From contig JANZZC010000019.1 of NCBI GenBank assembly GCA_026419575.1, forward strand, positions 1 to 51,065: 51,065 nt of DNA. The letters are read 5' to 3'. Both the position numbers and the translations under genes were made by a program. A model generated the notes under the pieces. That model made no database searches. It had not been told where the DNA came from and saw only the letters and a list, made by a program, of their open reading frames with translations. The DNA is from Thermomicrobium sp. (GTDB lineage: Bacteria > Chloroflexota > Chloroflexia > Thermomicrobiales > Thermomicrobiaceae). Below are positions 5,281 through 19,920 of the stretch, in pieces (positions within the stretch are counted from its first letter, which is position 1; the number at the start of each line of letters is the position of its first letter).

Positions 5281-6897
5281 TCACACGATCGGCCGGTAGG
5301 CTTCCGGATCCAGCGGCACCTCGATGACGAACGGCAGGCCCGAGCGCGTCGCCGCCAGCGCCTGCTCCGCTGCTGCCGCGAGTTCCTCGGCGGTCCGCGC
5401 GACCGTCCCAGCGCAGCCGCAGGCTTGGGCCACCAGCACGCTGTCGATCGGTTCGAAGTCCACGCCGTACCGCGGTAAGCCGCGGTTCTCCTGCCCGATC
5501 CGGATCAGCGAGTAGGAACGGTCGGCGATGACGAGCACGATGATCGGGGCACCGACCCGCCGCGCCGTCTCCAGCTCCTGACAGACCATCGAGAAGCCCC
5601 CGTCCCCGAGCGCCGCCAGCACCGGTGCCTCCGGCCGGGCCAGCTTCGCACCGATCGCTGCCGCCAGCCCGTACCCCATCCCCGACAGCCCGTTCGACAT
5701 CCAGAACGTCTCCGGCTGCCGGCTCGGCCAGAACTGACCGAAGAGGTACTTGTGCGAGCCGACGTCGGTCGTCACGATCGTCTCGGCAGGCAGCACGCGA
5801 GCCAGCGCCTCGACGATCCGCACCGGCGCGAGTCCCTCCGCCGGTGCGCGGCTACGGCCTGCGGCGATCGCCGCCCGCTCGGCCTGGAACTCCCCGAACG
5901 GACGCTCCCACCGCCGCGGCGGGGCGAGCTCGTCCAACGCTGCCAACAGCGCACCGTGGTCAGCCAAGAGGACGTCTCGACGCGGGAGGACCCCCGCGGC
6001 CTGCGCCGACTCTAGCACCCAGACGATCGGTAGCTGCGCGTGCCACGTCTTGTCCACCTCGACCGGATCGAACCCGAAGCCGACGAGGAGATCGGCGCGG
6101 CGCAGCGCCTCGACCATCAGGTCGTCGATCGCCATCCCCCCGACTACGCCGACGAAGTCGGTCGCCTCGTCCTGCTCGTCCACCAGCCCTTTCGCCTTCG
6201 GCGTCACTGCGACCGGTAACCGCCACGCCTGGAGCCAGCGTCGGAGCAGCGGCGCTCGCTCCGGTCGGACGCCGAGCCCGACGAGAACCAGCGGCCGCTC
6301 GGCGGTCGCCAGACGCTCAGCGAGTTCCCGCGCCGCCGCTCGGGCGTCGTCGTCCGGACGCAGCTCTCGGTTGGCCGGTTCCTCCCTCGTCACGAGACGC
6401 GCCGGCTGCCCCGCGTCCTCGGCCGAGAGCGTGAGGTAGGCCGGCCCGTGCGGCTCGCTCGTGCAGGCCTGGAGCGCCTGCCGCACGGGACGGTGCGGAT
6501 CGAGCGGGGTGACCGCTGCGCCGTACTTGACGATGGGTCGGTAGACGTCGTGCAACGGGAGCCGTTGGTGGGTATGGGTCAGCGGCCAGGTCGCGGGAAG
6601 ATCGGCCGTGATGGCGAGCAGCGGCTCGCGGTCCAGCCAGGCGTTGGCGAGCGGGAGCATCAGGTTGGCCGCGCCCGGTCCGAGCGTCGCCACTGCCACG
6701 CCAGCGGTGCGCCGCAGCTTGCCGTACACGGCTGCTGCGGTACCCGCAACCGCCTCGTGCCGGCAGAGCGTGAACGCGATCCCGGCTCGCCGCAGAGCAT
6801 CGAGCAGGACGAGGACCTCCCCACCCGGCAGCCCGAACGCACGGTCCACTTCCGCCGCTCGGAGTTCCTGCGCCACCATCTCCGCCACGCTCGCCAT
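5281..6897 (-). CDS. thiamine-diphosphate-dependent enzyme, acetolactate synthase large-subunit-like
   Basis: A 538-residue member of the ThDP family with the three expected domains: N-terminal pyrimidine-binding domain containing the essential Glu in CRHEAVAG, a central domain (VLVGLGVRPE...), and a C-terminal diphosphate-binding domain with the Mg/ThDP motif starting GDGGFSM. It resembles acetolactate synthase, benzoylformate decarboxylase and related decarboxylases. No ilvN regulatory subunit, ilvC or ilvD gene is nearby, and the usual Asn in the ThDP motif seems replaced in the IADRSYS stretch, so a catabolic or unassigned 2-oxoacid decarboxylase is at least as likely as true acetolactate synthase. 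The ATG at 6897 has GGAGGTG just upstream. Confidence 0.8.
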   Translation of the reverse strand: MASVAEMVAQELRAAEVDRAFGLPGGEVLVLLDALRRAGIAFTLCRHEAVAGTAAAVYGKLRRTAGVAVATLGPGAANLMLPLANAWLDREPLLAITADLPATWPLTHTHQRLPLHDVYRPIVKYGAAVTPLDPHRPVRQALQACTSEPHGPAYLTLSAEDAGQPARLVTREEPANRELRPDDDARAAARELAERLATAERPLVLVGLGVRPERAPLLRRWLQAWRLPVAVTPKAKGLVDEQDEATDFVGVVGGMAIDDLMVEALRRADLLVGFGFDPVEVDKTWHAQLPIVWVLESAQAAGVLPRRDVLLADHGALLAALDELAPPRRWERPFGEFQAERAAIAAGRSRAPAEGLAPVRIVEALARVLPAETIVTTDVGSHKYLFGQFWPSRQPETFWMSNGLSGMGYGLAAAIGAKLARPEAPVLAALGDGGFSMVCQELETARRVGAPIIVLVIADRSYSLIRIGQENRGLPRYGVDFEPIDSVLVAQACGCAGTVARTAEELAAAAEQALAATRSGLPFVIEVPLDPEAYRPIV

Positions 6898-7206
6898 ACC
6901 ACACCTCCCTCAAGCGTTCGACCGGGACGACCGACGATCCTATCAGGACGCTGTGCAGACAGGGTCACACGCGGAGTATCGCATGGCGGTGAGTGCTCCG
7001 CGGTCTCTCGACGCGATATGCCCAGCCGCACATGGATCAGACGAGGTAACGAGGGACGAATGGACATTCTCCATCACGACTCATGCTTCCTGCGCGACCA
7101 GCTCCGGATATCGCATCGATTTCCGGTCGGCCGCCCACCGGAAGGAGACCGACCGGCACTGGTCGGATGATCGCGCGGAACGTCCGCTCCAAGCGAGGAA
7201 GAGGCG
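6898..7206. other. divergent promoter region
   Basis: About 309 bases between two divergent genes. On the minus strand TAGGAT (6941-6936) could be a -10 for the ThDP enzyme. I see no gene-like frame or structured RNA motif in the remainder. Confidence 0.35.
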
Positions 7207-10200
7207 ATGCGTGCAACCGCAGGAGCTCAGACGAACCGCGATCCGCGGCAATGGCTGGAAGAACGCGCCAAGCGCTTGCTCGATCTGACCGGGCGCAACC
7301 CCTTGCTGCACAGCCAACCCCGACTCGAACCGCGTGCCCCTTCGCCAGCGGCCATCTGGCAAGAACTCGTCAAAGGAGAAGAGCGATTGCTCATCCTCGC
7401 AGCTCCACCGGCGCAGAACACGCAGCCTGCGCCGGCGGCTGCGGTCGGACCCGAGACGCCGCTGACCGAGAACGAGCTCCCGGCGCTGCGTGCGACCGGC
7501 GGCCCCAGCCGCGAGCCAGCGCTCACCGTTCCGCTCGACCAGGTGGAACTCGAACGCCGTTTGACCCAACTGCGTCGAAAGGCTCGCTCAGCGTACGACG
7601 ATGCCGGCTTCTGGACACTCTTCATGGCCTTCGGCGCACTGGAATGGACACCGAGCACGGAAGCCGGCAAACGCTTTCTGTCACCTCTCGTGCTGGTCCC
7701 CGTCTCCATCGAACGCCAGCGCCCCGGACAACCGTTCTCTCTCCGATGGCGCGACGATGAAGAGATGCAAGCCAACCAGGCACTGCGTGTCTACCTGGAA
7801 GAGGTCGAGAAACTGCGCTTGGACGGCTTCGAGCCGTCGGACGAGAGCGACCTGGAAGACCTCCTCGACACCGTGGAGGACCTCGTCCGCGAGCGGGGAT
7901 GGGTCGTCCACCGCCGGTGCTGGGTCGGACAGTTCGCGTTCCAGAAACTGGCGATCTACCGCGATCTCCGCGACAACGCGGAACGGATCCTCGCCCACCC
8001 GATCGTGCGCGCGGCTGCAGGGTACGAGCCTCCATCCTTCGTCGACCGACAACGCGATCCGCGGACCTTCGATACCGAGCCGGTCCAAGAGGTCGCCACC
8101 GTCCTTCCCTGTGACAGCAGTCAGCTGCAAGCGGTCCTGAAGGCGCGCGCCGGGCAGACCTTCGTGATCCAAGGACCGCCCGGCACCGGCAAGAGTCAGA
8201 CGATCGTGAACATCATCGCCGACCAACTAGCTCGTGGGAAAACCGTGCTGTTCGTGAGCGAAAAGCGCGCTGCCCTGGAGGTCGTCGAACGCCGACTGCA
8301 GCACGTCGGGCTCGGACCCTATTGCCTGAACTTGCATAGCCATGAGGCACACCGCGGCGAGGTACTGCAAAGCATCGTCAACGAACTGTCCCCGAGCCAG
8401 CAGACACAGGGACGAGGCTCTTCCGAGCTGGTTCGTCAGCTCGAACGGCACCGCGACAGGCTCCGCGACTATACCGGCACCCTCCATGCGCCGCGCCCAC
8501 CGCTGGGACGAACCCCCTTCAGCGTCATCGGCCGCGTGCTCCGTCTACCCGACGTGGGCATCTCGGCACGCATCGACCTGGATCCGCGTACCCTGACCGA
8601 GCAGCTCCTCGACCGACTACGCACGCAGGCCCAACGTCTGGCCGCCGACATCGACCTCCTGCGCGAAGGAGAGAGGTTCCCATGGGCGTCGGCACGGCGC
8701 GAGCTGACGGAGCGAGAACTCGCCGCGCGAGCCCGAGAGGCACGCGCAGCCTTCGAGGCCTGGGTCGAGGAGCTCGGACAGGCAAGTCAGGCCCTGGGAC
8801 TCCGTCCCCCGATCGACCTGCGGAGCGCGGCTGACTGCATGCAACTCCTTCGGCGTTTTGCGACAGCGGAGGCGTTCGACCCGGCGTTGACGAGCCAGAA
8901 GGACGTCTCACGGTGGCTCGCCTGGGTCCAGGAAGCGGCCAGTGCGCTGGACTCGCCCGAGCGCTTTCCCCGCGACGAGCTTCCGGAGTTCGGCCCTCGC
9001 TTCTTTCTGCCGGAACCGCCTGATCTCCCGTCCACCGTCGCGGCAGCGCTCGCTGACCGTGCGCAGATGCTCGTTCAGGTGCTCGCCCCCCGTTCGCCCA
9101 CGATCGGCCGCGAGGAACTCTTCGCACTGGCCAGTGACACGGCCGACCTCCGAGGAGCCTGGCACGACCTCGTCGAAGCCGCTCACCGGTTGTCCCGTGC
9201 ACTGGGCATGCAGCCTCCCGCCACGTACCGGGAACTCCGTGGGGTGATTCTGGCCGCGCGCTGTCTCGAAGCAGGCGTCGCGGTACCGCACGAGTGGCGA
9301 CGGCCGGCGCAGCGCGAGGGGCTCGAGCGCCTGGGGTCGTTGGTCGAGGCGCTTCGGCAGGAACAGGCACTCCGCCGGCGCATCGTCAAACAGTGGGACG
9401 AGCGACTCCTCGAGCACCCCATCGGCGACCTCGCCCGTCCGTGGCTCCGCTGGCAGCCGCAGCGCTTTCTGCGGTGGCTGATCCCCTCCTACCGGCGTGC
9501 CCGGGCGCTGTTCCGCCGTCACTACCGTGGTCCGGCGTCGTTCGAGGAACGAGCGACCGTCCTGGCTGAGCAGCTGCTCGAACTGCACGGTCTGCGTCAG
9601 AGGATCGACCGCTTGCGCGAGGATCCGGTGCTCGAACCGCTCCTCGCTCTGCTTCCGGCCGACGTCGCCGCGAACCCCGAAACCGTGGACACGCTCGCCC
9701 AGGCCGCGATCGCGATGCAGGACCGGGCGGTCGATCCCCAGTGGCAGCGTGTCCTCGTCGGCATGCAACCCCTCTCGGCAGAGATCCGAGCGGTGGCCAG
9801 CTCCCTCGTCTCGGCATGGCGCGAACTCTGCCTGGCGGAAGAACAGCGGAACATCGCGCTACTCGCCCCGTGCCCAGACCATGCACCGGTCCATCCGGAG
9901 ACGCTGCCCGAGTCAGTGCTTCTGCTGCAGGACTTCGCCCGGTGGTGGCAGACCGAGGCCGACCAGCTGCCGGAGCGACTGCCGATCGAACGCGTGCCGG
10001 TACTCATCGGCAAGGCCACAGACCTCTACGCAGTCCGGGAACGATACGCACGCGCCGCTCGAACGGCGTCCGACCACTGGCAGGCGATCCCTCCGGCGAG
10101 CGCCGCGGCGTGGCGCACGCTGGCGGAGAACCTCTCGCTCTGGCAAGCCTTCGGCGCCTGGTACGACACGGCGGACGTACCGCAGCCGCTGCGAGACGCC

Positions 10201-12195
10201 GCGATCGATCCGCATCGTCGTCCTGACCCCGCGCCGCTGGAGCAGCGATGGCACCGATTCCACCAGGCCATCACCCAGCTCGCCGCCGTCTTCGCGGACT
10301 CCGCTCTTCCCTTCGCGAACCGGAAGTTCCCGAGCGCGTTCGCACGACCGAGCGAGTGGTCCTTACCGAGCGTGCTCCCAGCGCTCCCCTTGGCCGATCT
10401 TCGCGCGTTGCTCGACTCCTTGGTCGAGCGAGCCCAAGACATCAGGCGATTTCGCCTCGCTGCGGACGCCGCACGCGACCTCACCGAGCATCTTTCGGAG
10501 AGCGTCGTTTCCAACCTCGTCGAACGCCGCGAACTCGCGCCCGAATCCATCCCCGACGTCGTCGAGCGCCTCGTGCTGACCCGGTGGCTCGAATGGGTCG
10601 CCGACGGCCACGAGCTGCTCGCGCACTTCGAGCACTCGCTGCACGAAGCACAGCGACAGCACTTCGTCGCGCTCGACGAGCGACTCGAGGTCTGGCAAGC
10701 GCAGCACGTGATCGATTCCTTGAACCGACGCCGCGCGCGACTCGACGGCGGTGATCGTGCGGTCGCACTGCTCAAGCGCGAAGCCACCAAACGGCGTCGC
10801 CACAAGTCTCTGCGGACGATCTTCCGAGACTGCTTCGACGTCATCCTGGCCGTCAAGCCGTGTTGGTTGATGAGTCCGCTCTCGGTCAGCCATTTCTTAC
10901 AACCGCACCACCAGTTCGATCTGGTGATCATGGACGAAGCCTCACAGATCCTCCCGGAAGACGCGATCCCTGCCCTCTACCGAGCGCGACAGGCGATCGT
11001 CTGCGGAGACTCCAAACAGCTGCCGCCGACCCGCTTCTTCGAGTCCACGATCCTGGACCTCGACGAGCCGGACGAGGAGGAAGTCTCGGACAGCGATCCT
11101 GGGGAGAGCATCCTGGAAACGCTCGAGGTTCGGTACCCGAGCGTGTGGCTTCTCTGGCACTACCGGAGCAAGGACGAACGGCTCATCGCCTTCTCCAATG
11201 CAGCCTTCTATGACACCCGTCTCATCACGATCCCGACCCCGGTCGACCCTGCTTTGCCCACCGGCATCGCGTTCCGGTTCGTGGGGGGCATCTACGACCG
11301 CAGTGGTCGGCGAACGAATGCGGCCGAGGTCGAGGAGGTCTGTCGTCTCATCAGCGAGCACCTCGAACGCTGGGGGACCGGACGATCCCTCGGTGTCGTG
11401 ACGATGAACGAGCCCCAAATGCACGCCATCCTGGACGAGCTCGAGCGTCGTTCCGTGCTCGAACAGCAGTTCCAGATGCTTTGGGACGCCTCGCGCTGGC
11501 CGAACGGGGAAGAGTTCTTCGTCAAGAACCTGGAAGCGGTGCAAGGGGACGAGCGTGACGTGATCATCGTCTCGACGGTCTATGGACGAGACGCACGCGG
11601 ATCCTTCTCGCTCCAGATCGGGCCGCTCACCCGAGCGGGTGGAGAGCGGCGACTCAACGTCCTAGTTACTCGCGCTCGCGAGCAGCTGGTCCTCGTCACT
11701 TCTCTGCAACCGGAGGACTTCCGACTCACCGACGAGGAGCGGCAGGTCGGGCTTCGCGTTTTCCGCGATTACCTCCGCTACGCGCGCGACGGGGTCCTTC
11801 CCGCAGCGCCGCAGTCGTCCGTTGGCGGCCCATTCGAATCGGATTTCGAAGCGAGCGTCGCCGACGTCATCCGCTCATGGGGCTACGACGTGCGACCCCA
11901 GTTCGGCGTCGGTCGGTACCGGATCGACCTGGCGATCCCCGATCCGCGCGATCCCACTCGTATCCGCGTCGCAGTCGAGTGCGACGGCGCGACCTATCAC
12001 CGTCTCCCCACGGTGCGGGAACGCGATCGGCTCCGTCAGCAGTGGTTGGAACGGAACGGCTGGACCGTCATCCGCGTCTGGTCGACCGACTGGTGGTACC
12101 GGAGACGAGCTGCTGAAGAAAGGCTGCGGCAGGCGCTGGAGCACGCTTTCGGGGCGACCGTCGCCTCCTATTCGGAGAGCGAGGCCGCTTCCTGA
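7207..12195 (+). CDS. giant SF1 helicase with DUF4011 N-terminus and Vsr/MTES_1575-type nuclease C-terminus
   Basis: A 1662-residue protein. Residues about 15-60 match DUF4011 (WLEERAKRLLDLTGRNPLL). The helicase core is split: Walker A GPPGTGKSQT at about 322-331, Walker B MDEASQILPEDA at about 1241, then GDSKQLPPTRFF, a HYRSKDE motif, AVQGDERDVIIVS and VTRAREQLV near 1488. These are AAA_11/AAA_12 (Upf1-like) features. Between Walker A and B lies an approximately 900-residue helical insert. The last ~110 residues hold a PD-(D/E)XK-like nuclease, with RIDLAI, VECDGATYH and a GWTVIRVWSTDWW tail, as in the MTES_1575/Vsr group. Proteins of this build are common in defence islands and may unwind and cut invading DNA or RNA; that role is inferred. 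GAGGAAGAGG precedes the ATG. It is monocistronic. Confidence 0.88.
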   Translation: MRATAGAQTNRDPRQWLEERAKRLLDLTGRNPLLHSQPRLEPRAPSPAAIWQELVKGEERLLILAAPPAQNTQPAPAAAVGPETPLTENELPALRATGGPSREPALTVPLDQVELERRLTQLRRKARSAYDDAGFWTLFMAFGALEWTPSTEAGKRFLSPLVLVPVSIERQRPGQPFSLRWRDDEEMQANQALRVYLEEVEKLRLDGFEPSDESDLEDLLDTVEDLVRERGWVVHRRCWVGQFAFQKLAIYRDLRDNAERILAHPIVRAAAGYEPPSFVDRQRDPRTFDTEPVQEVATVLPCDSSQLQAVLKARAGQTFVIQGPPGTGKSQTIVNIIADQLARGKTVLFVSEKRAALEVVERRLQHVGLGPYCLNLHSHEAHRGEVLQSIVNELSPSQQTQGRGSSELVRQLERHRDRLRDYTGTLHAPRPPLGRTPFSVIGRVLRLPDVGISARIDLDPRTLTEQLLDRLRTQAQRLAADIDLLREGERFPWASARRELTERELAARAREARAAFEAWVEELGQASQALGLRPPIDLRSAADCMQLLRRFATAEAFDPALTSQKDVSRWLAWVQEAASALDSPERFPRDELPEFGPRFFLPEPPDLPSTVAAALADRAQMLVQVLAPRSPTIGREELFALASDTADLRGAWHDLVEAAHRLSRALGMQPPATYRELRGVILAARCLEAGVAVPHEWRRPAQREGLERLGSLVEALRQEQALRRRIVKQWDERLLEHPIGDLARPWLRWQPQRFLRWLIPSYRRARALFRRHYRGPASFEERATVLAEQLLELHGLRQRIDRLREDPVLEPLLALLPADVAANPETVDTLAQAAIAMQDRAVDPQWQRVLVGMQPLSAEIRAVASSLVSAWRELCLAEEQRNIALLAPCPDHAPVHPETLPESVLLLQDFARWWQTEADQLPERLPIERVPVLIGKATDLYAVRERYARAARTASDHWQAIPPASAAAWRTLAENLSLWQAFGAWYDTADVPQPLRDAAIDPHRRPDPAPLEQRWHRFHQAITQLAAVFADSALPFANRKFPSAFARPSEWSLPSVLPALPLADLRALLDSLVERAQDIRRFRLAADAARDLTEHLSESVVSNLVERRELAPESIPDVVERLVLTRWLEWVADGHELLAHFEHSLHEAQRQHFVALDERLEVWQAQHVIDSLNRRRARLDGGDRAVALLKREATKRRRHKSLRTIFRDCFDVILAVKPCWLMSPLSVSHFLQPHHQFDLVIMDEASQILPEDAIPALYRARQAIVCGDSKQLPPTRFFESTILDLDEPDEEEVSDSDPGESILETLEVRYPSVWLLWHYRSKDERLIAFSNAAFYDTRLITIPTPVDPALPTGIAFRFVGGIYDRSGRRTNAAEVEEVCRLISEHLERWGTGRSLGVVTMNEPQMHAILDELERRSVLEQQFQMLWDASRWPNGEEFFVKNLEAVQGDERDVIIVSTVYGRDARGSFSLQIGPLTRAGGERRLNVLVTRAREQLVLVTSLQPEDFRLTDEERQVGLRVFRDYLRYARDGVLPAAPQSSVGGPFESDFEASVADVIRSWGYDVRPQFGVGRYRIDLAIPDPRDPTRIRVAVECDGATYHRLPTVRERDRLRQQWLERNGWTVIRVWSTDWWYRRRAAEERLRQALEHAFGATVASYSESEAAS

Positions 12196-13145: not shown

Positions 13146-13891
13146 ACGAACACTCCTTTCCTCCCGAGACCGAACGCTCGCTCCGAGTCTCGTCCTGCTG
13201 GTGCGACCCGTGCCCCTCGCTCGAGCGGTCATCGTGCTCACCACTTGCGATCTTCGCAGAGGGCGCAGGCACTGTGAACGCCGACCGACCGCTCAGGCGC
13301 GGCCGATCGAGCCGGGCGACGCCCCGCGAAACCGGTGCCGAGAACGGCGTCTGCGCCCAGATGCGTTTGACCAGACCTCGTTGTCTGCCAGGATTGCGGC
13401 GGTTCTCACCACCCGGTTCTGCTGTCGGCGAACGCTGCCGATCACCCTGCACGTCCACACACCGCCGGGGCCTCTCGCTCGAGCAGTCTCCGCTCTTCCT
13501 CTGACCCGCGGAGCGATCCCGCCTCGCCCGGACGGCGTGCCGTCGCTGGGCGCTGCGAGCGTCCCGTGCCGTCGCGGTCGGAGGCCAGCGACCGAACACG
13601 GCACACCGCGTAGAATCAGGCAGCGGCGCCCGCCGGATCGGCTACGACCGGGGTCCGTGCTGGTGGCGAGCGTCTCGACCACTGCCCTGCACCGACCGAT
13701 GGAGTCTCGCCCGCCGGCGCGAGGACACGATGCGCCCGACCGTGCGGCATGCTTCGTCTCGTCGCAGCCGAGCACGGCGTGACCAGTACGCGTCCGTGCG
13801 TTCGACGCCGCAGCCGACGCCGGTCGCCTCGACGATGCGGCGAGAACGCGCGCAGGACTCCGCAGCGAGGTCGAAAGGAGCAGTGCTCGCC
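13146..13891. other. 746-base intergenic region
   Basis: No protein-like frame on either strand; the long minus-strand frames are Arg/Gly-rich shadows. A TAGAAT box at 13612-13617 could be a -10 for the downstream proline-racemase-family gene, which would give it a leader of about 270 bases. I see no recognised riboswitch class in that leader, although its length leaves room for one. Confidence 0.4.
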
Positions 13892-14935
13892 ATGTTCGGC
13901 AATGCCCGTCACGTCCTGCACGTCTGGGACTACCACCACGGTCAGGTCACCCGCATCGTCGTCTCCGGTTGTCCACCGCTGCATGGTCGCACCGTGCGCG
14001 AGAAGCAAACCGATCTCGCGACCCGCTACGATCACCTCCGCGCTCTCGTCTGTCGCGAGCCGCGCGGCCATCGCAACCTGCTGGGGGCGTTCCTCACCGA
14101 GCCCGAGCGTCCCACCAGTCACGCGGGCGTCATCTTCGTCCATCCGGGTGGATACTTCGACGCCTGTGGCGATTCGACCTTCAGCGTCGCTGTCGCTCTG
14201 CTCGAAAGCGGTCTCGTCCCCCGCGCGACCGACGACGGTGAGCAGGAACTGGTCCTGGACACGGTGCTGGGGCCGGTCCCCGTGCGGGTGCGTCTCCGCC
14301 AGGGACGGGTCGTCGCCGTCACCATGTCCAGCGGCCCCTCCTATGCCTTGGGCGAAGCAGTGCTGGAGACCAGCGAACTCGGTCGCGTCCCCGTGACCCT
14401 CGCCTGGGGCGGCCTCCTCTACGCCTTCGCCGACGCGACTGCCCTGGGCCTCGAACTCGGACCGGACCTCCCACCCTCGGCACGCGAGCACGTGCTGGAG
14501 GTCGGGACCGCGCTCTGGCAAGCAGCGCGCGAGCGACTCCGCGCCGACGTTCCCGGGATCGCCACCGACCGTCCCGTCGACCTCGTGACGCTCGTGCAAG
14601 AACTCGCGACCGACGGCACGCCGCTCCCCCCAGGAGCGGACGCTCGTCCAGCCGGAGCGCGCGTGGCCAATTTCTACGCACCCCGGACGATGGGTCGCAC
14701 CCCCTCGGGAACCGGGACCGCTGCGCGCGTCGCTGCCCTCGTCGCGGCCGGTCGGCTCGCGCTGGGCACGTCGTACTTCCACGAGAGTCCGGTCGGCCTG
14801 CGTTTCACCGCTCGTCCCGTGCGACGCGAGGGATCGGCGGTCCACAGCGAGATCAGCACGATGTCCTACTGCATGGGGATCGCCACGCTGGTCCTGCGCG
14901 ACGACGACCCGTTTCCGACCGGCTTCTCGTTGTAG
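13892..14935 (+). CDS. proline racemase family protein with altered catalytic sites
   Basis: A 347-residue member of the proline racemase/hydroxyproline epimerase/trans-3-hydroxyproline dehydratase family. The fold signatures are present (WDYHHGQVTRIVVSG at the start, GPSYALGEAVLE, TGTAARVAALVA, EISTMSYCMG at the end). The first catalytic motif, normally MCGHG, is ACGDS here (Cys92 kept, His lost). The second, normally DRSPCGTG, is GRTPSGTG, so the second catalytic Cys is Ser272 and the Asp is lost. This rules out ordinary two-Cys racemisation and points towards a dehydratase-like or new activity. ATG 13892 is chosen; a GTG at 13883 is closer to the AAAGGAG at 13874-13880. It is alone in its transcription unit. 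Confidence 0.82.
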   Translation: MFGNARHVLHVWDYHHGQVTRIVVSGCPPLHGRTVREKQTDLATRYDHLRALVCREPRGHRNLLGAFLTEPERPTSHAGVIFVHPGGYFDACGDSTFSVAVALLESGLVPRATDDGEQELVLDTVLGPVPVRVRLRQGRVVAVTMSSGPSYALGEAVLETSELGRVPVTLAWGGLLYAFADATALGLELGPDLPPSAREHVLEVGTALWQAARERLRADVPGIATDRPVDLVTLVQELATDGTPLPPGADARPAGARVANFYAPRTMGRTPSGTGTAARVAALVAAGRLALGTSYFHESPVGLRFTARPVRREGSAVHSEISTMSYCMGIATLVLRDDDPFPTGFSL

Positions 14936-15277: not shown

Positions 15278-16549
15278 ATGGGGATGCCGCTCGAACCCGC
15301 TCGCAGGGTACTGGGTGATCGAGGTCCGTGCTGGGACGACCGGCTGCGCGCAGCTCAGGCGGCGCTCCACGCTCTGATCGACCTCGACCAGCTCGCGACC
15401 AACGCGCGAATCCTCCTCCGGACCCTTCCAGGCGACACGGAACTCCTCGCGATCCTCAAAGCCAACGCCTACGGCCACGGCCTCGTCCCGGTCGCCCGCG
15501 CCGCACTCGCGGGTGGTGCCCGCTGGCTCGGGGTCGCCCGCATCGAGGAGGGCGCCATCCTCCGTCGCGCCGGCATCGCTGCCCCGGTGGTCGTCCTCGG
15601 CCCTCCCAACCACGACCGCCTGCGCGAGGCGATCGTCCACGGACTCAGCCTGGCGGTCGGCTCGCTCGCCGATGTCGTCGCCGTGCGGGCCGCGGCCACC
15701 GCGCTCGGTCGTCGGGCACGCGTCCACTTGGAGATCGATACCGGGATGCATCGCTTCGGGGCCACTCCGGAGGAAGCGGTCGCCCTGGCTCGTCTGCTCG
15801 CCGGCGATCCTGCGGTCGAGTTCGAGGGGATCTACACCCACTTCGCGACGGCGGATGCCCCCGATTGCCGCGGGCTCCGCCTCCAGCAGGCGCGCTTCCG
15901 CGCGGTACGCGAGCGCCTGCTCGCCGAGGGACTGCATCCGCCGGTCGTCCACCAGGCCAACAGCGCGGCGACGCTGCGCGGCGCGATCGGCGATCCGGAT
16001 CTTCCCGGCCGGCGCGTCGTCCGCGTCGGCATCGCCTTCTACGGGCTCGCCCCCGACCCGGCGATGGCGCTCCCCGCCGGGATCCGCCCGGCTCTGGAGC
16101 TCCGCGCCCGCCTCGCCCGCTGCTTCACCGTCGCGGCCGGAGAAGGAATCTCCTACGGGCATACCTACGTGACCGAGCAGCCGACGCGCTGCGGGCTCGT
16201 GCCGGTCGGCTATGCCGACGGCTTGCCGCGAGCGCTCTCCAACCGAGGATGGTTCGCCGTGCGGGGTGTCCCCTGCCCCATCCGCGGCCGGGTCTGCATG
16301 GACCAGACGATCGTCTCCCTCGAGGACGTCCCGGAGGCAGGCCCCGGCGACCCCGTCGTCGTGCTCGGTGACCCGGAGTCGGGGGCGATGTCCGCTTGGG
16401 ACGCCGCCCGGCTCAGCGACACGATCGCCTACGAGATCCTCACCAGCCTGGCAGCACGGATCCCCCGCATCTACCTCCGCGGGGGAGCACCGGTCGCGCT
16501 CGCCGATCTCTTCGGCCTGATCGAACGGGACGAGTTCCCCGCTGGGTAG
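15278..16549 (+). CDS. alr: alanine racemase
   Basis: A 423-residue PLP enzyme converting L-alanine to D-alanine for peptidoglycan. The PLP lysine is in AILKANAYGHG, the catalytic tyrosine in ISYGHTYVT, and other family blocks include HLEIDTGMHRFG, GIYTHFATAD, HQANSAATL, RVGIAFYG and CMDQT. The N-terminus is about 25-30 residues longer than typical, so translation may start later than the ATG at 15278; a second ATG lies at 15284. GGGGGAAGGG precedes both. It is followed 89 bases later by the receiver/membrane fusion gene on the same strand, with no obvious functional link. Confidence 0.92.
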   Translation: MGMPLEPARRVLGDRGPCWDDRLRAAQAALHALIDLDQLATNARILLRTLPGDTELLAILKANAYGHGLVPVARAALAGGARWLGVARIEEGAILRRAGIAAPVVVLGPPNHDRLREAIVHGLSLAVGSLADVVAVRAAATALGRRARVHLEIDTGMHRFGATPEEAVALARLLAGDPAVEFEGIYTHFATADAPDCRGLRLQQARFRAVRERLLAEGLHPPVVHQANSAATLRGAIGDPDLPGRRVVRVGIAFYGLAPDPAMALPAGIRPALELRARLARCFTVAAGEGISYGHTYVTEQPTRCGLVPVGYADGLPRALSNRGWFAVRGVPCPIRGRVCMDQTIVSLEDVPEAGPGDPVVVLGDPESGAMSAWDAARLSDTIAYEILTSLAARIPRIYLRGGAPVALADLFGLIERDEFPAG

Positions 16550-16638: not shown

Positions 16639-18930
16639 ATGGCTGAACGACCGATCCGCATCCTCCTCGTCGACGATCACGCGCTCTTCCGGCAAGGCCT
16701 CCGCCAGCTCCTGGCGACGACCGACGATCTCCTCGTCGTCGGTGAAGCGGCGTCCGGCCAGGAGGCGGTGGAACTCGCCGGGAGGCTCGCCCCCGACGTC
16801 GTCCTCATGGACATCGCCATGCCCGACCTCGACGGCATCGCCGCGACCGCGACCCTGCGGGCACGCTTCCCGCACGTCCGCATCGTCATGCTGACGATGT
16901 ACGACGCGACCACGCACGGCGAGGCGGCGCGTGCCGCCGGCGCGATCGCCTACGTCGTCAAGAGCAGCCACCCCGACGAGCTCTTCCAGGCGATCCGGTC
17001 CGCGGTCAACGGCTCGGCACCACCGGTCGAACCGCCTCCGCCGCGACCGAGCGCCCCCGAGCCGCCGGACCAGGCGGCGCGCCTGGAGCACCTCGAGCGG
17101 CGGCTGCGCTGGCTCGAGGCCCAGTTCGCCGCGCTGGCAGCCGGTGCGGCCAGCGCACCGCTCCAGCCGAACGGCAGCGGGACGACCACGCCGGTCGCGC
17201 CACCGGCCCCGGCCGCCCCGCCGGAGACGCGAGCTCCGGCGGCACCGCCAGCTCCACCGGACAGCGAGCCGGTCGCGCCGGCGCCGCGGTCCGTCGCACC
17301 ACGACGGGCCGTGCCGTCCCTCCCCGGCCACGTCCGGCTCTGGGTCTGGCTCGCCGGTGTTCTGGCGGTGGCCGCACTCGCCGGCGCGGCTGCCCTCCGT
17401 CCGGCGGTCTTCGGCGCGCTCGCCCCCGTGCTCTCGCTCGGCGCGGGACTCGCGGCGAGCGCGCTGCTCCTGCTGTTCGCGGCGGTGGGACCAGTGCGAC
17501 CGGCTCGTGCCCACCTCGCGCTCCTCTCCGCCACCGCCGCCGCCTTCGGCTGGAGCACGGTGTCGGCCGGACCGGGCCCGCGCGGAGCAGCGGCGGTGGC
17601 CGGGCTCCTGGCGATCGCGCTCCCGGCTGTCGCGCTGGCCTGGCGCCGTGACCTCCTGCTGGCGGCCGCTCTCGCGCTCGCGGTCGCGACGCTCGCCCCC
17701 GCCCGCTCCGGGGTCTTCCCGGTCACGGCCGGGATCTGGTGGGGCACCGGCGCCGTGCTCCTCGCCGCAGCGCTCGGCTGGGCAGCGCTGCGCCAGGAAC
17801 GCCGGCAGGGCGCCTGGGAGTGGCTGCCGCTGGCGCCGCTCGTCGCCTGCCTCCCGTCGCTGCTCGCGGCCGGGCAGGCGCTCGCTGGTCCCGATCCGGT
17901 GCTCGTCTCCCTCCCCTGGCTCGCCACCGTGCCGGTGCTCGAGCGAACGGTACGGACCGGCCGGAGGAGCGCGCCCTGGCTCGTTGCGGTCGAGGGGGCG
18001 CTCGCCGCCGGTACCTTCGCTTGGCTCCTGCGGGCAGCGCCACCGGCCCACCAGGCCAGCGGGCTCGCGGCCTTCGCGACCGGCACGGCGGTGCTCGCTG
18101 CGCTCCTCTGGCAGGCGAGCCGACGGACAGGCCGGAACTCGGCTGCGGCCGAACTCGCCGCCGCGCTGGCAGCCGGCACCCTGGCACTGGCTGCCTTCCG
18201 GCACCCCGAAGCCGCGCTGGCGCCCCTCACCTGGTCGGCGCTCGCCGTGGCGCTCGCGGCGGCCGGTCGCGCGCGCGCCCCGTGGCGATGGGCCGCCGCA
18301 GCGAGCTTCCTCGCGGCGGCTGGCGCGACCGTGGCGCTGGCGCTCGGGCCGCTGGATCCGGCGCGGCTCGGCGTCCTCCTCGCAGCGCTCGCCGGAGCGA
18401 CCGCGGGCGGCGCGCTGCTCGTCCTGCGCCCCTGGTGGTTCCCGCTCGGCTGGGTCGGAACGGGCACGGCCGCGCTCGTCGTCGCGGCGCTCGCGCGGCT
18501 CGCCGGCATCGCCGAACTCGCCCTGCTCAGCGCGGTCGCGCTCGGCGCGGCGAGCCTCGCCCGACTCCTCGCCGCGTCGAGTCCCCCGGCGGCCCGGCGC
18601 TGGTTCTGGTTCCCCGCCGCCGGGGCCGGAGCCCTGACGCTCGCGCGTGCCGTCAGCGGTCCCCTCTCCCCGGCTCGGCTCGGGCTCGCGCTCGAGCCGT
18701 CGGTCTCGGCGACGAGCGAACCGGTCGTCGCGGCGAGCATCCTGGTCGCCGCCGCGCTCCTCGCCGGCCGCTTGCTCGGGCGCCGCTGGCGCTGGACCGC
18801 CATCGCGGTGGCGCTCCTCGTCGTCGCCTACGCGCTGCCCGCGGTCGTGCCCGATGCCGCGCTCGTCGTGAGCTGGCTCGCCCTGGCGACCGCCCTCGCC
18901 CAGGCCGTCGGTGGACGCCCCTGGCGCTGA
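16639..18930 (+). CDS. receiver domain fused to a DUF2339-like polytopic membrane domain
   Basis: A 763-residue fusion. Residues 1-125 are a complete NarL-type receiver domain: acidic pair Asp12/Asp13, phosphoacceptor Asp58 in VVLMDIAMPD, Thr86 and Lys108 are all present. A Pro/Ala linker carries a short coiled coil (LEHLERRLRWLEAQFAAL), and from about residue 240 to the end come many closely packed hydrophobic segments, perhaps 16-18. The coiled coil plus Pro-rich linker plus membrane bundle is the usual plan of DUF2339 proteins, so the receiver replaces or precedes their N-terminus. There is no DNA-binding HTH. No histidine kinase is nearby. ATG 16639 is chosen over GTG 16624. The role is unknown; phosphorylation may gate the membrane part. 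Confidence 0.85.
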   Translation: MAERPIRILLVDDHALFRQGLRQLLATTDDLLVVGEAASGQEAVELAGRLAPDVVLMDIAMPDLDGIAATATLRARFPHVRIVMLTMYDATTHGEAARAAGAIAYVVKSSHPDELFQAIRSAVNGSAPPVEPPPPRPSAPEPPDQAARLEHLERRLRWLEAQFAALAAGAASAPLQPNGSGTTTPVAPPAPAAPPETRAPAAPPAPPDSEPVAPAPRSVAPRRAVPSLPGHVRLWVWLAGVLAVAALAGAAALRPAVFGALAPVLSLGAGLAASALLLLFAAVGPVRPARAHLALLSATAAAFGWSTVSAGPGPRGAAAVAGLLAIALPAVALAWRRDLLLAAALALAVATLAPARSGVFPVTAGIWWGTGAVLLAAALGWAALRQERRQGAWEWLPLAPLVACLPSLLAAGQALAGPDPVLVSLPWLATVPVLERTVRTGRRSAPWLVAVEGALAAGTFAWLLRAAPPAHQASGLAAFATGTAVLAALLWQASRRTGRNSAAAELAAALAAGTLALAAFRHPEAALAPLTWSALAVALAAAGRARAPWRWAAAASFLAAAGATVALALGPLDPARLGVLLAALAGATAGGALLVLRPWWFPLGWVGTGTAALVVAALARLAGIAELALLSAVALGAASLARLLAASSPPAARRWFWFPAAGAGALTLARAVSGPLSPARLGLALEPSVSATSEPVVAASILVAAALLAGRLLGRRWRWTAIAVALLVVAYALPAVVPDAALVVSWLALATALAQAVGGRPWR

Positions 18931-19143: not shown

Positions 19144-19920
19144 ATGCGAGCGCCACAGATCACCGGAAAGCCGATCACCCAAGCACGTCTGCACCAGCGC
19201 GTGGTCGAGGAACTGCTCAAGCAGATCGTCGGCGGTGCGTTGCCACCGGGCACGACGTTGCCCTCGGAGCCCGAGCTGGCCCGCCAGTTCGGGGTGAGCC
19301 GGATCGTCATCCGTGAGGCGATCCGCATCCTCGTCGAGAAGGGGTTGGTCGCCGTCCGCCACGGGAGCGGGATGTGGGTCCAGCCGCCCGAGCAGTGGGA
19401 CCAGCTCGACCCGATGATCCTGCTGGAGCAGATCCGTTCGCAGCGGGATCCGCGCCGGCTCGAGGAGCTGCTCGAGCTGCGCAGCATCTTGGAAGTCGCC
19501 GCCGCCGAGCTCGCCACGCTGCGCCGGACACCGGAGCAGGTGGCGCGGCTGCAAGACCTCCTCGAGCGGATGCGGGCGGCCGTCGCCGATCCTGCCGCCT
19601 ACGGTAACCTGGACCAGGCTTTCCACCAGGCGATCGCCGAGGCGGCCGGGAACCGTCTCCTCGGCGAGGCTCGCCAGCCGCTCGGCGAGGTGCTGGCGAC
19701 CGCCTGGCTCCTGACCGGCCGCGCGCCGGAGCGGCTCGCCCGCGCCCAGCAGGAGCACGAGGAACTCTACGCGGCGATCGCTGCCGGTGACCCGTTCGCC
19801 GCCCGGCAGGCGATGCAGCGCCACCTCGAACAGGAGGCGGAGGCTATCCGCAGCGAGCTCGCCCTCCCGGCGCGCGACCTGGCGACGATCGCGAGCGACG
19901 GGCGCGAGGCTGCGGACTGA
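19144..19920 (+). CDS. FadR-subfamily GntR transcriptional regulator
   Basis: A 258-residue regulator: an N-terminal winged helix (residues about 12-80, with LPSEPELARQFGVSRIVIREAIRIL as recognition region and VRHGSGMWV wing) and a C-terminal all-helical FCD ligand-binding domain (LEELLELRSILEVAAAELA, NLDQAFHQAIAEAAGN, QQEHEELYAAIAAGD). The FCD metal ligands appear present (Asp in NLDQAFH, His residues in FHQAI and QRHLE). Such proteins usually repress genes for uptake or breakdown of organic acids or sugar acids. No such gene is adjacent, so the effector is unknown. The upstream palindrome suggests self-control. Confidence 0.88.
   Translation: MRAPQITGKPITQARLHQRVVEELLKQIVGGALPPGTTLPSEPELARQFGVSRIVIREAIRILVEKGLVAVRHGSGMWVQPPEQWDQLDPMILLEQIRSQRDPRRLEELLELRSILEVAAAELATLRRTPEQVARLQDLLERMRAAVADPAAYGNLDQAFHQAIAEAAGNRLLGEARQPLGEVLATAWLLTGRAPERLARAQQEHEELYAAIAAGDPFAARQAMQRHLEQEAEAIRSELALPARDLATIASDGREAAD

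What the first reader, a model, noticed from the sequence alone, without database searches (positions are those of the whole stretch)
16639..18930. Receiver domain fused to a DUF2339-like multi-pass membrane protein
All receiver residues (Asp12/13, Asp58, Thr86, Lys108) are intact, and the output is not DNA binding but about 16-18 membrane helices with the DUF2339 coiled-coil/Pro-rich preamble. This implies two-component control of a membrane process, a design I do not recall as described.
Basis: partly seen in the sequence, partly recalled or inferred. Interest (0 to 1): 0.75.

Follow-up and report, generated by a model that had tools for sequence, protein, structure and literature searches.

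The report
Signal receiver fused to membrane protein
A heat-loving bacterium and its close relatives carry a protein in which a phosphorylation switch, normally used to turn genes on, is joined directly to a large membrane protein of a family linked elsewhere to survival of membrane damage, so the cell may switch a membrane process without going through gene expression.

Summary
Window 16639-18930 (+) is one intact 763-residue ORF: a receiver (PF00072, E 1.7e-27; Asp12/13, Asp58, Thr86, Lys108 identical in 9 of 9 fusion proteins), a coiled coil, a Pro-rich linker and about 20 (not 16-18) membrane helices, N-in/C-in by the positive-inside rule. It is no artefact: complete copies occur in 7 other genomes of the class plus T. 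roseum DSM 5159, where it is filed as a 'response regulator transcription factor'. In the class it is confined to three genera of one family (10 of 158 genomes, counting one copy cut by a contig end and one broken). Pfam does not recognise the window's membrane part, but orthologues match DUF2339, and a genus-only profile aligns to unfused DUF2339 at 98.9% (controls at most 33%). Two additions: the fused DUF2339 lacks its last quarter (about 204 of 852 positions, with 15 of 30 fully invariant columns), and all nine fusions form one clade. DUF2339 is Arc3A in Pseudomonas, a Gac-regulated protein that limits lysophospholipid damage; here such a process might be switched by phosphorylating the protein itself. 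That step is inference: the kinase is unknown, and T. roseum membranes are reported to contain diols, not glycerolipids.

The parts
16639..18930 (+). Complete receiver-DUF2339 fusion gene (763 aa plus stop)
   Evidence: orthologues end to end and T. roseum WP_012642735.1
16660..16998 (+). Receiver domain (residues 8-120); phospho-acceptor Asp58 codon at 16810-16812
   Evidence: PF00072; key residues identical in 9 of 9
17020..17337 (+). Linker, residues 128-233, 29 prolines of 106
   Evidence: least conserved part, 30-50% identity within the genus
17071..17148 (+). Probable coiled-coil helix, residues about 145-170
   Evidence: helix in the low-confidence model; heptad-like motif in 8 of 9 fusion proteins, absent in L023; a similar element, judged by eye, precedes many unfused DUF2339
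17338..18912 (+). About 20 transmembrane helices, residues 234-758, descended from DUF2339 but lacking its last quarter
15278..16549 (+). Neighbour: alanine racemase (alr), 89 bases upstream of the ATG, same strand
   Evidence: PF01168, PF00842; alr next to or one ORF from the fusion in 8 of 10 loci
19144..19920 (+). Neighbour: GntR/FadR-type regulator (FCD domain)
   Evidence: within about 2.2 kb of the fusion in 10 of 10 loci, the window included

Best explanation
It is a membrane-embedded response regulator. A histidine kinase (unidentified, cytoplasmic side) phosphorylates Asp58 of the receiver; phosphorylation changes pairing of receivers, and the change passes through the coiled coil and linker to switch the activity of a shortened DUF2339 membrane domain that handles lipids or other envelope stress. 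Shown by sequence: intact receiver, conserved fusion, DUF2339 descent, purifying selection. Predicted: cytoplasmic N-terminus (positive-inside rule). Inferred: phosphorylation, signal path through the coiled coil, lipid or envelope role (by analogy with Arc3A of Pseudomonas).
For: Receiver residues identical in 9 of 9; the receiver is the best-conserved part (78-82% identity within the genus against 47-51% for the membrane part); dN/dS 0.20-0.30 for the receiver and 0.21-0.37 for the membrane part in three pairs, so both halves are kept. Single origin of the membrane half: 9 fusions form one clade against 20 unfused DUF2339 proteins, support 100/100. Topology puts the receiver in the cytoplasm (at the cut-off that gives 20 helices). 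DUF2339 descent. Arc3A, a DUF2339 protein, prevents lysophospholipid accumulation during attack by the lipase Tle3 (PMC8926400, section 8 read) and is reported to be under GacS/GacA control and to protect against lipase effectors (PMC12663445, passages), so a two-component link to DUF2339 exists elsewhere at the level of expression. The g3/g4 fusion receivers fall in one clade (97/98) with ordinary-sized response regulators of the same family and order, a plausible donor.
Against: No HisKA_3 or HATPase_c match on the window's contig; each of the genome's four HisKA_3 matches sits beside another receiver gene. The fused DUF2339 lacks the last quarter of the family, which holds 15 of the 30 columns invariant in all eight unfused proteins aligned, so Arc3A function need not carry over. 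PMC8926400 predicts an N-terminal lipid anchor in the outer membrane for Arc3A, an orientation unlike the cytoplasmic N-terminus needed here. T. roseum is reported to have long-chain 1,2-diols in place of glycerolipids and no plsB (PMC2615216, passages), so the known lysophospholipid substrates may be absent. The coiled-coil motif is missing in 1 of 9 (L023). One congener (G004) has a copy broken by frame shifts, so the gene is dispensable there or misassembled. The direction of signalling is not fixed by any result.
Confidence: 0.5

Rival explanations
1. Membrane-tethered phosphate sink or decoy: the receiver, held at the membrane by the DUF2339 remnant, drains phosphate from or competes for the kinase of a related response-regulator system; the membrane part is only an anchor or localiser.
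For: g3/g4 fusion receivers cluster with ordinary-sized regulators and the window receiver is 57% identical to the regulator on contig C62 of its own genome, so a shared kinase is plausible; loss of the conserved last quarter of DUF2339 suggests loss of the old activity.
Against: An anchor would not need 20 helices kept end to end under purifying selection, dN/dS 0.21-0.37. The sensor beside the C62 regulator has only a HisKA_3 match below cut-off and no HATPase_c hit.
Confidence: 0.2
2. Reverse flow: the membrane half senses the state of the membrane and the receiver is the output, modulating a kinase or a partner protein by phosphorylation-dependent binding.
For: Receivers without an effector domain can act by binding partners (CheY, Spo0F; recalled, from no call). 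Nothing in the sequence fixes the direction of the signal.
Against: No sensory role of DUF2339 was met in the papers seen; no other cytoplasmic domain was found by Pfam or NCBIfam.
Confidence: 0.15
3. Vestigial: a fusion maintained in a small clade with no phospho-control, the receiver serving as a folded cap or dimerisation domain.
For: Confined to three genera of the class; one broken copy in G004.
Against: The phosphotransfer residues checked are unchanged in 9 of 9 over receivers down to 56% identity to the window's.
Confidence: 0.12
4. Assembly or frameshift artefact joining two genes.
For: None found.
Against: Full-length fusions in 7 other genomes of the class plus the T. roseum megaplasmid record.
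Confidence: 0.01

Closest known systems
DUF2339 / PF10101 family, including Arc3A of Pseudomonas aeruginosa
   Same: Multi-pass membrane domain aligned over 482 (genus profile), 517 (all nine) or 536 (g3/g4) columns; unfused members in the class and phylum often have a similar coiled-coil and Pro-rich start, judged by eye.
   Different: Receiver domain in front; last quarter (class-profile positions about 648-852) absent; window copy so diverged that Pfam misses it.
NarL/FixJ response regulators (PF00072 + GerE)
   Same: Receiver of that type: best NCBIfam receiver matches are MctR and NarL models, and solved structures matched include VraR and NarL.
   Different: No DNA-binding output; output is an integral membrane domain.
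GacS/GacA control of arc3A in Pseudomonas
   Same: A two-component system governs a DUF2339 protein (PMC12663445, passages).
   Different: There at the level of expression; here the receiver is part of the protein itself.

Membership tests
Response regulator receiver (PF00072) | Curated match and intact Asp-Asp / Asp / Thr / Lys | tested here: met
   (96.2 bits, cut-off 30.2)
NarL/FixJ response regulator | C-terminal GerE helix-turn-helix | tested here: not met
   GerE is not among the families matched by any of the 9 fusion proteins at E <= 1
DUF2339 (PF10101) | Direct match of the window protein above Pfam cut-off | tested here: not met
   also not significant with a profile of 8 unfused class members (E 9)
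DUF2339 (PF10101) | Match by orthologues or by profile-profile comparison | tested here: met
   4 of 9 fusion proteins at E <= 1, best 7.1e-18; those of G008, G013, G016 and the partial one of G018 above cut-off; genus-only profile 98.9%, E 2.7e-17 with controls
DUF2339 (PF10101) | Conserved C-terminal part | tested here: not met
   alignments stop at 643-648 of 852 in the 7 of 9 fusions that match at E <= 1; the other two do not reach significance but stop there too; 15 of 30 columns invariant in all 8 unfused rows lie beyond
Arc3A function (limits lysophospholipid accumulation) | Protection against phospholipase toxin; lysophospholipid levels | not testable with these tools
   needs an experiment
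Two-component pathway | Cognate histidine kinase and phosphotransfer | tested here: inconclusive
   no kinase domain on the window's contig; candidates elsewhere in the genome only

The most novel reading that the evidence does not exclude
A response regulator whose output domain is itself a 20-helix integral membrane protein: direct phosphorylation control of a DUF2339 lipid- or envelope-protection activity, re-tooled by loss of its conserved last quarter, in a lineage one of whose members (T. roseum) is reported to build its membrane from long-chain diols.
Probability: 0.35. Interest if true: 0.82.

Novelty: new variant of a known kind. Interest (0 to 1): 0.6.

Why it matters
DUF2339 is described as widespread and its mechanism as unknown (PMC8926400, section 8). 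A natural fusion to a receiver with unchanged phosphotransfer residues gives a handle: one can lock the switch on or off by the acceptor aspartate and ask what changes in the membrane. If the receiver works, it adds a polytopic membrane domain to the outputs of response regulators, and it argues for a cytoplasmic DUF2339 N-terminus in this lineage. Public annotation currently hides it: the T. roseum copy is named a transcription factor.

Tried and rejected
Artefact: rejected. Direct Pfam/NCBIfam assignment of the membrane half: no hit. DUF2339 resemblance as mere composition: rejected by reversed (32.9%, 8 columns), 20 block-shuffled (best 28.8%) and 10 column-shuffled (best 0.4%) controls and by reversed proteins against the class profile (all negative bit scores). 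Structure: single-sequence AlphaFold2 gave mean pLDDT 45, so no fold search was run. Solved structures: the 60 listed of 237 matches of the fusion profile all lie within profile positions 1-171, the receiver end. It also missed a known fusion: contig length and place of L037 (HRbin28) equal those of G006, which has one. Its negative therefore has no weight. Plasmid scan: 1 of 1,103 records above 60% identity, the T. roseum copy. Partner kinase: the sensor beside the C62 regulator is a weak candidate. PADLOC: no match for the fusion at E <= 0.001. DUF2339 self-comparison suggests internal repeats (97.2%, E 3e-11), but the fused form does not show them clearly (27.2%), so nothing is built on it.

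Full report
What is there. The window frame 16639-18930 (+) encodes 763 residues without interruption. Residues 8-120 are a receiver (PF00072, E 1.7e-27; best NCBIfam models MctR and NarL, matched over their receiver part only and far below their whole-protein cut-offs). Residues 128-233 are a Pro-rich linker (29 of 106 residues) with a probable coiled-coil helix at about 145-170. From 234 on the protein is hydrophobic. No DNA-binding domain was found in it or in its eight aligned orthologues.

It is a conserved protein. Among 61 genomes examined first, three congeners have the whole protein at 53-54% identity. A profile of nine fusion proteins (A1) was then run over all 158 genomes that the class search returned: 10 match at E <= 1e-80, all in one family and 3 of 78 genera. 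Eight are complete (G000, G001, G002, G006, G008, G009, G013, G016); G018 is cut by the end of its contig; G004 is broken, its three matching pieces lying in different frames. Two incomplete congeners (G003, 54%; G005, 62% complete) show none, and neither do the 9 genomes of the family's three other genera. One of these nine, G014, has an unfused DUF2339. In 400 genomes drawn from the phylum no listed match outside this family covers both halves; several unfused DUF2339 proteins match only from about position 150 on, behind the receiver. Limits: only the best 2 or 6 candidates per genome were scored, and the list was cut. T. roseum DSM 5159 has the fusion on its megaplasmid, 770 aa, annotated 'response regulator transcription factor'. 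No other phylum could be sampled.

Searches with PF10101 itself find DUF2339 in 18 of 158 genomes of the class and 26 of 400 of the phylum. Of 42 distinct frames from the loci fetched that match a class DUF2339 profile, 4 also match the receiver, all of them fusions named above.

Topology. Hydropathy averaged over orthologues gives 20 helices in the genus set, in the g3/g4 set and in all nine at a cut-off of 1.3, and in each case positive charges lie on the receiver side (19.2 vs 7.4; 20.0 vs 5.3; 19.1 vs 5.7). The count depends on the cut-off: at 1.45 it is 17 and 19, and the bias vanishes (14.0 vs 13.0) or reverses (10.3 vs 15.8). I prefer 20 because only then do charges alternate in both sets, and because the single-sequence model, useless as a fold, also draws 20 helices of 11 or more residues. 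The receiver is then cytoplasmic, as it must be to meet a kinase.

Is the membrane half DUF2339? The window protein alone does not say so: no PF10101 match at E <= 1, none in its genome, and E 9 with a profile of eight unfused class members. The orthologues do: PF10101 matches 4 of 9 fusion proteins, best E 7.1e-18, with G008, G013, G016 and partial G018 above the curated cut-off. With the receiver cut off, the class profile gives 1e-129 for L028, 1e-26 for L025, 8e-16 for L021 and 7e-7 for T. roseum, but 7.3 for L023 and 9 for the window. A profile of four genus members (window, L021, L022, T. roseum; PF10101 finds nothing in the genomes of the first three) aligns to unfused DUF2339 with probability 98.9%, E 2.7e-17, over 482 columns, against at most 32.9% over 8 columns for the reversed profile and 28.8% in 20 block shuffles. 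Run directly by HMMER, that genus profile finds the fusions of g3/g4 (1e-28 to 1e-10) but none of the unfused DUF2339 frames at E <= 1e-3, so the link to unfused members rests on the g3/g4 fusions, on the match of three genus proteins to the class profile, and on profile-profile comparison. The tree of membrane halves puts the nine fusions in one clade against 20 unfused proteins (100/100), with a long branch (1.83) to the genus of the window, which would explain why Pfam misses it. The 20 were picked by me from 38 listed frames without a receiver match, the rest being fragments, near-duplicates or weak; 10 of 29 rows have an unusual letter make-up, and the root is the midpoint.

What is missing. 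In the seven fusions that match at E <= 1 the class profile ends at 643-648 of 852; the other two end there too without significance. Pfam matches end at 344-348 of 659. The missing 204 positions are 24% of the class profile; they hold 15 of the 30 columns invariant in all eight unfused proteins and 20 of 59 counted with at least six rows. No separate gene for the missing part is detected in the genome, which is 90.9% complete.

Origin of the receiver. Receivers of the g3/g4 fusions group with ordinary-sized response regulators of the same family and order (97/98), while those of the genus form their own clade (98/98) whose place is not resolved (122 columns only). The closest relative in the own genome is the regulator on contig C62 (57%), which has a GerE domain. 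The sensor beside it has a GAF domain, a HisKA_3 match below cut-off and no HATPase_c hit; in 7 of 7 aligned members of its family the Asn that I recall as defining the N-box is not seen. So the obvious partner is doubtful. The other three HisKA_3 kinases have HATPase_c domains and receivers beside them.

Surroundings. alr lies next to the fusion or one ORF away in 8 of 10 loci (in L025 on the other side; not within the stretches fetched for L026 and L028), and a GntR/FCD regulator lies within about 2.2 kb in 10 of 10, the window included. Neither HisKA_3 nor HATPase_c matches anywhere on the window's contig.

How it may work. DUF2339 is Arc3A in P. aeruginosa: it lowers lysophosphatidylethanolamine and monolysocardiolipin during attack by the lipase Tle3, four proteins from other species restored defence, and the mechanism is unknown (PMC8926400, section 8 read; a figure legend there gives the polytopic protein the name Arc3B). 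The paper found no part for Arc3A in turning lysophosphatidylethanolamine back into phospholipid, and predicts a lipidated N-terminus at the outer membrane, unlike the cytoplasmic N-terminus here. A later study supports a role against lipase effectors and GacA dependence (PMC12663445, passages). In the present protein a two-component switch would act on the protein itself. Against a simple transfer stand the missing last quarter and the report that T. roseum membranes are made of long-chain 1,2-diols with no plsB gene (PMC2615216, passages). Section 16 of that paper (read) counts 16 response regulators and names DNA binding as the main output plus a few enzymes; it does not mention a membrane output.

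Literature. Ten papers in the library hold 'DUF2339', and four hold 'response regulator' too; I saw listings of these, and passages or sections of one (PMC8926400). Nothing seen concerns a fusion. Searches for membrane response regulators gave no description of this architecture in the listings seen (one search found no paper). The library is open-access only. One archaeal census (PMC5847659) was looked at by passages only.

Verdict. Real, conserved, mis-annotated and unusual: a receiver whose output is a polytopic membrane domain. New variant of a known kind. The function remains inferred.

Noticed in passing
L162:4628-6838 (-), own genome contig C62, and relatives in L200-L205: GAF-type sensor beside a GerE response regulator; HisKA_3 match below cut-off, no HATPase_c hit, and in 7 of 7 aligned members the usual N-box Asn (recalled motif) is not seen, though a His in the HisKA_3 region is kept: a possibly kinase-inactive or atypical sensor family.
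   Followed up: partly
window 7207-12195 (+): Large helicase (DUF4011, AAA_11/12, MTES_1575 nuclease domain); best PADLOC models PDC-S37 (E 0) and Hhe (3.2e-142): a candidate anti-phage defence protein.
   Followed up: partly
L024 (G004), about 6687-8981 (-): Copy of the fusion gene in pieces lying in different frames, in a congener rated 99% complete; pseudogene or sequencing error.
   Followed up: partly
L036:12001-14313 (T. roseum NC_011961.1 143988-146300): Public record names the 770-aa fusion 'response regulator transcription factor' although no DNA-binding domain was found in it.
   Followed up: yes
unfused DUF2339 proteins, alignment A3: Self-comparison shows off-diagonal matches (97.2%, E 3e-11), suggesting that DUF2339 is built from internal repeats.
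   Followed up: partly
L124, L173, L174, L175, L119: Some unfused DUF2339 proteins begin with zinc-ribbon-like Cys motifs (by eye), i.e. alternative N-terminal parts at the place where the receiver sits here.
   Followed up: no
window 13730-14935 and 15278-16549: Proline racemase-like and alanine racemase genes side by side near the fusion; both also lie near it in L021-L025 and L036.
   Followed up: no
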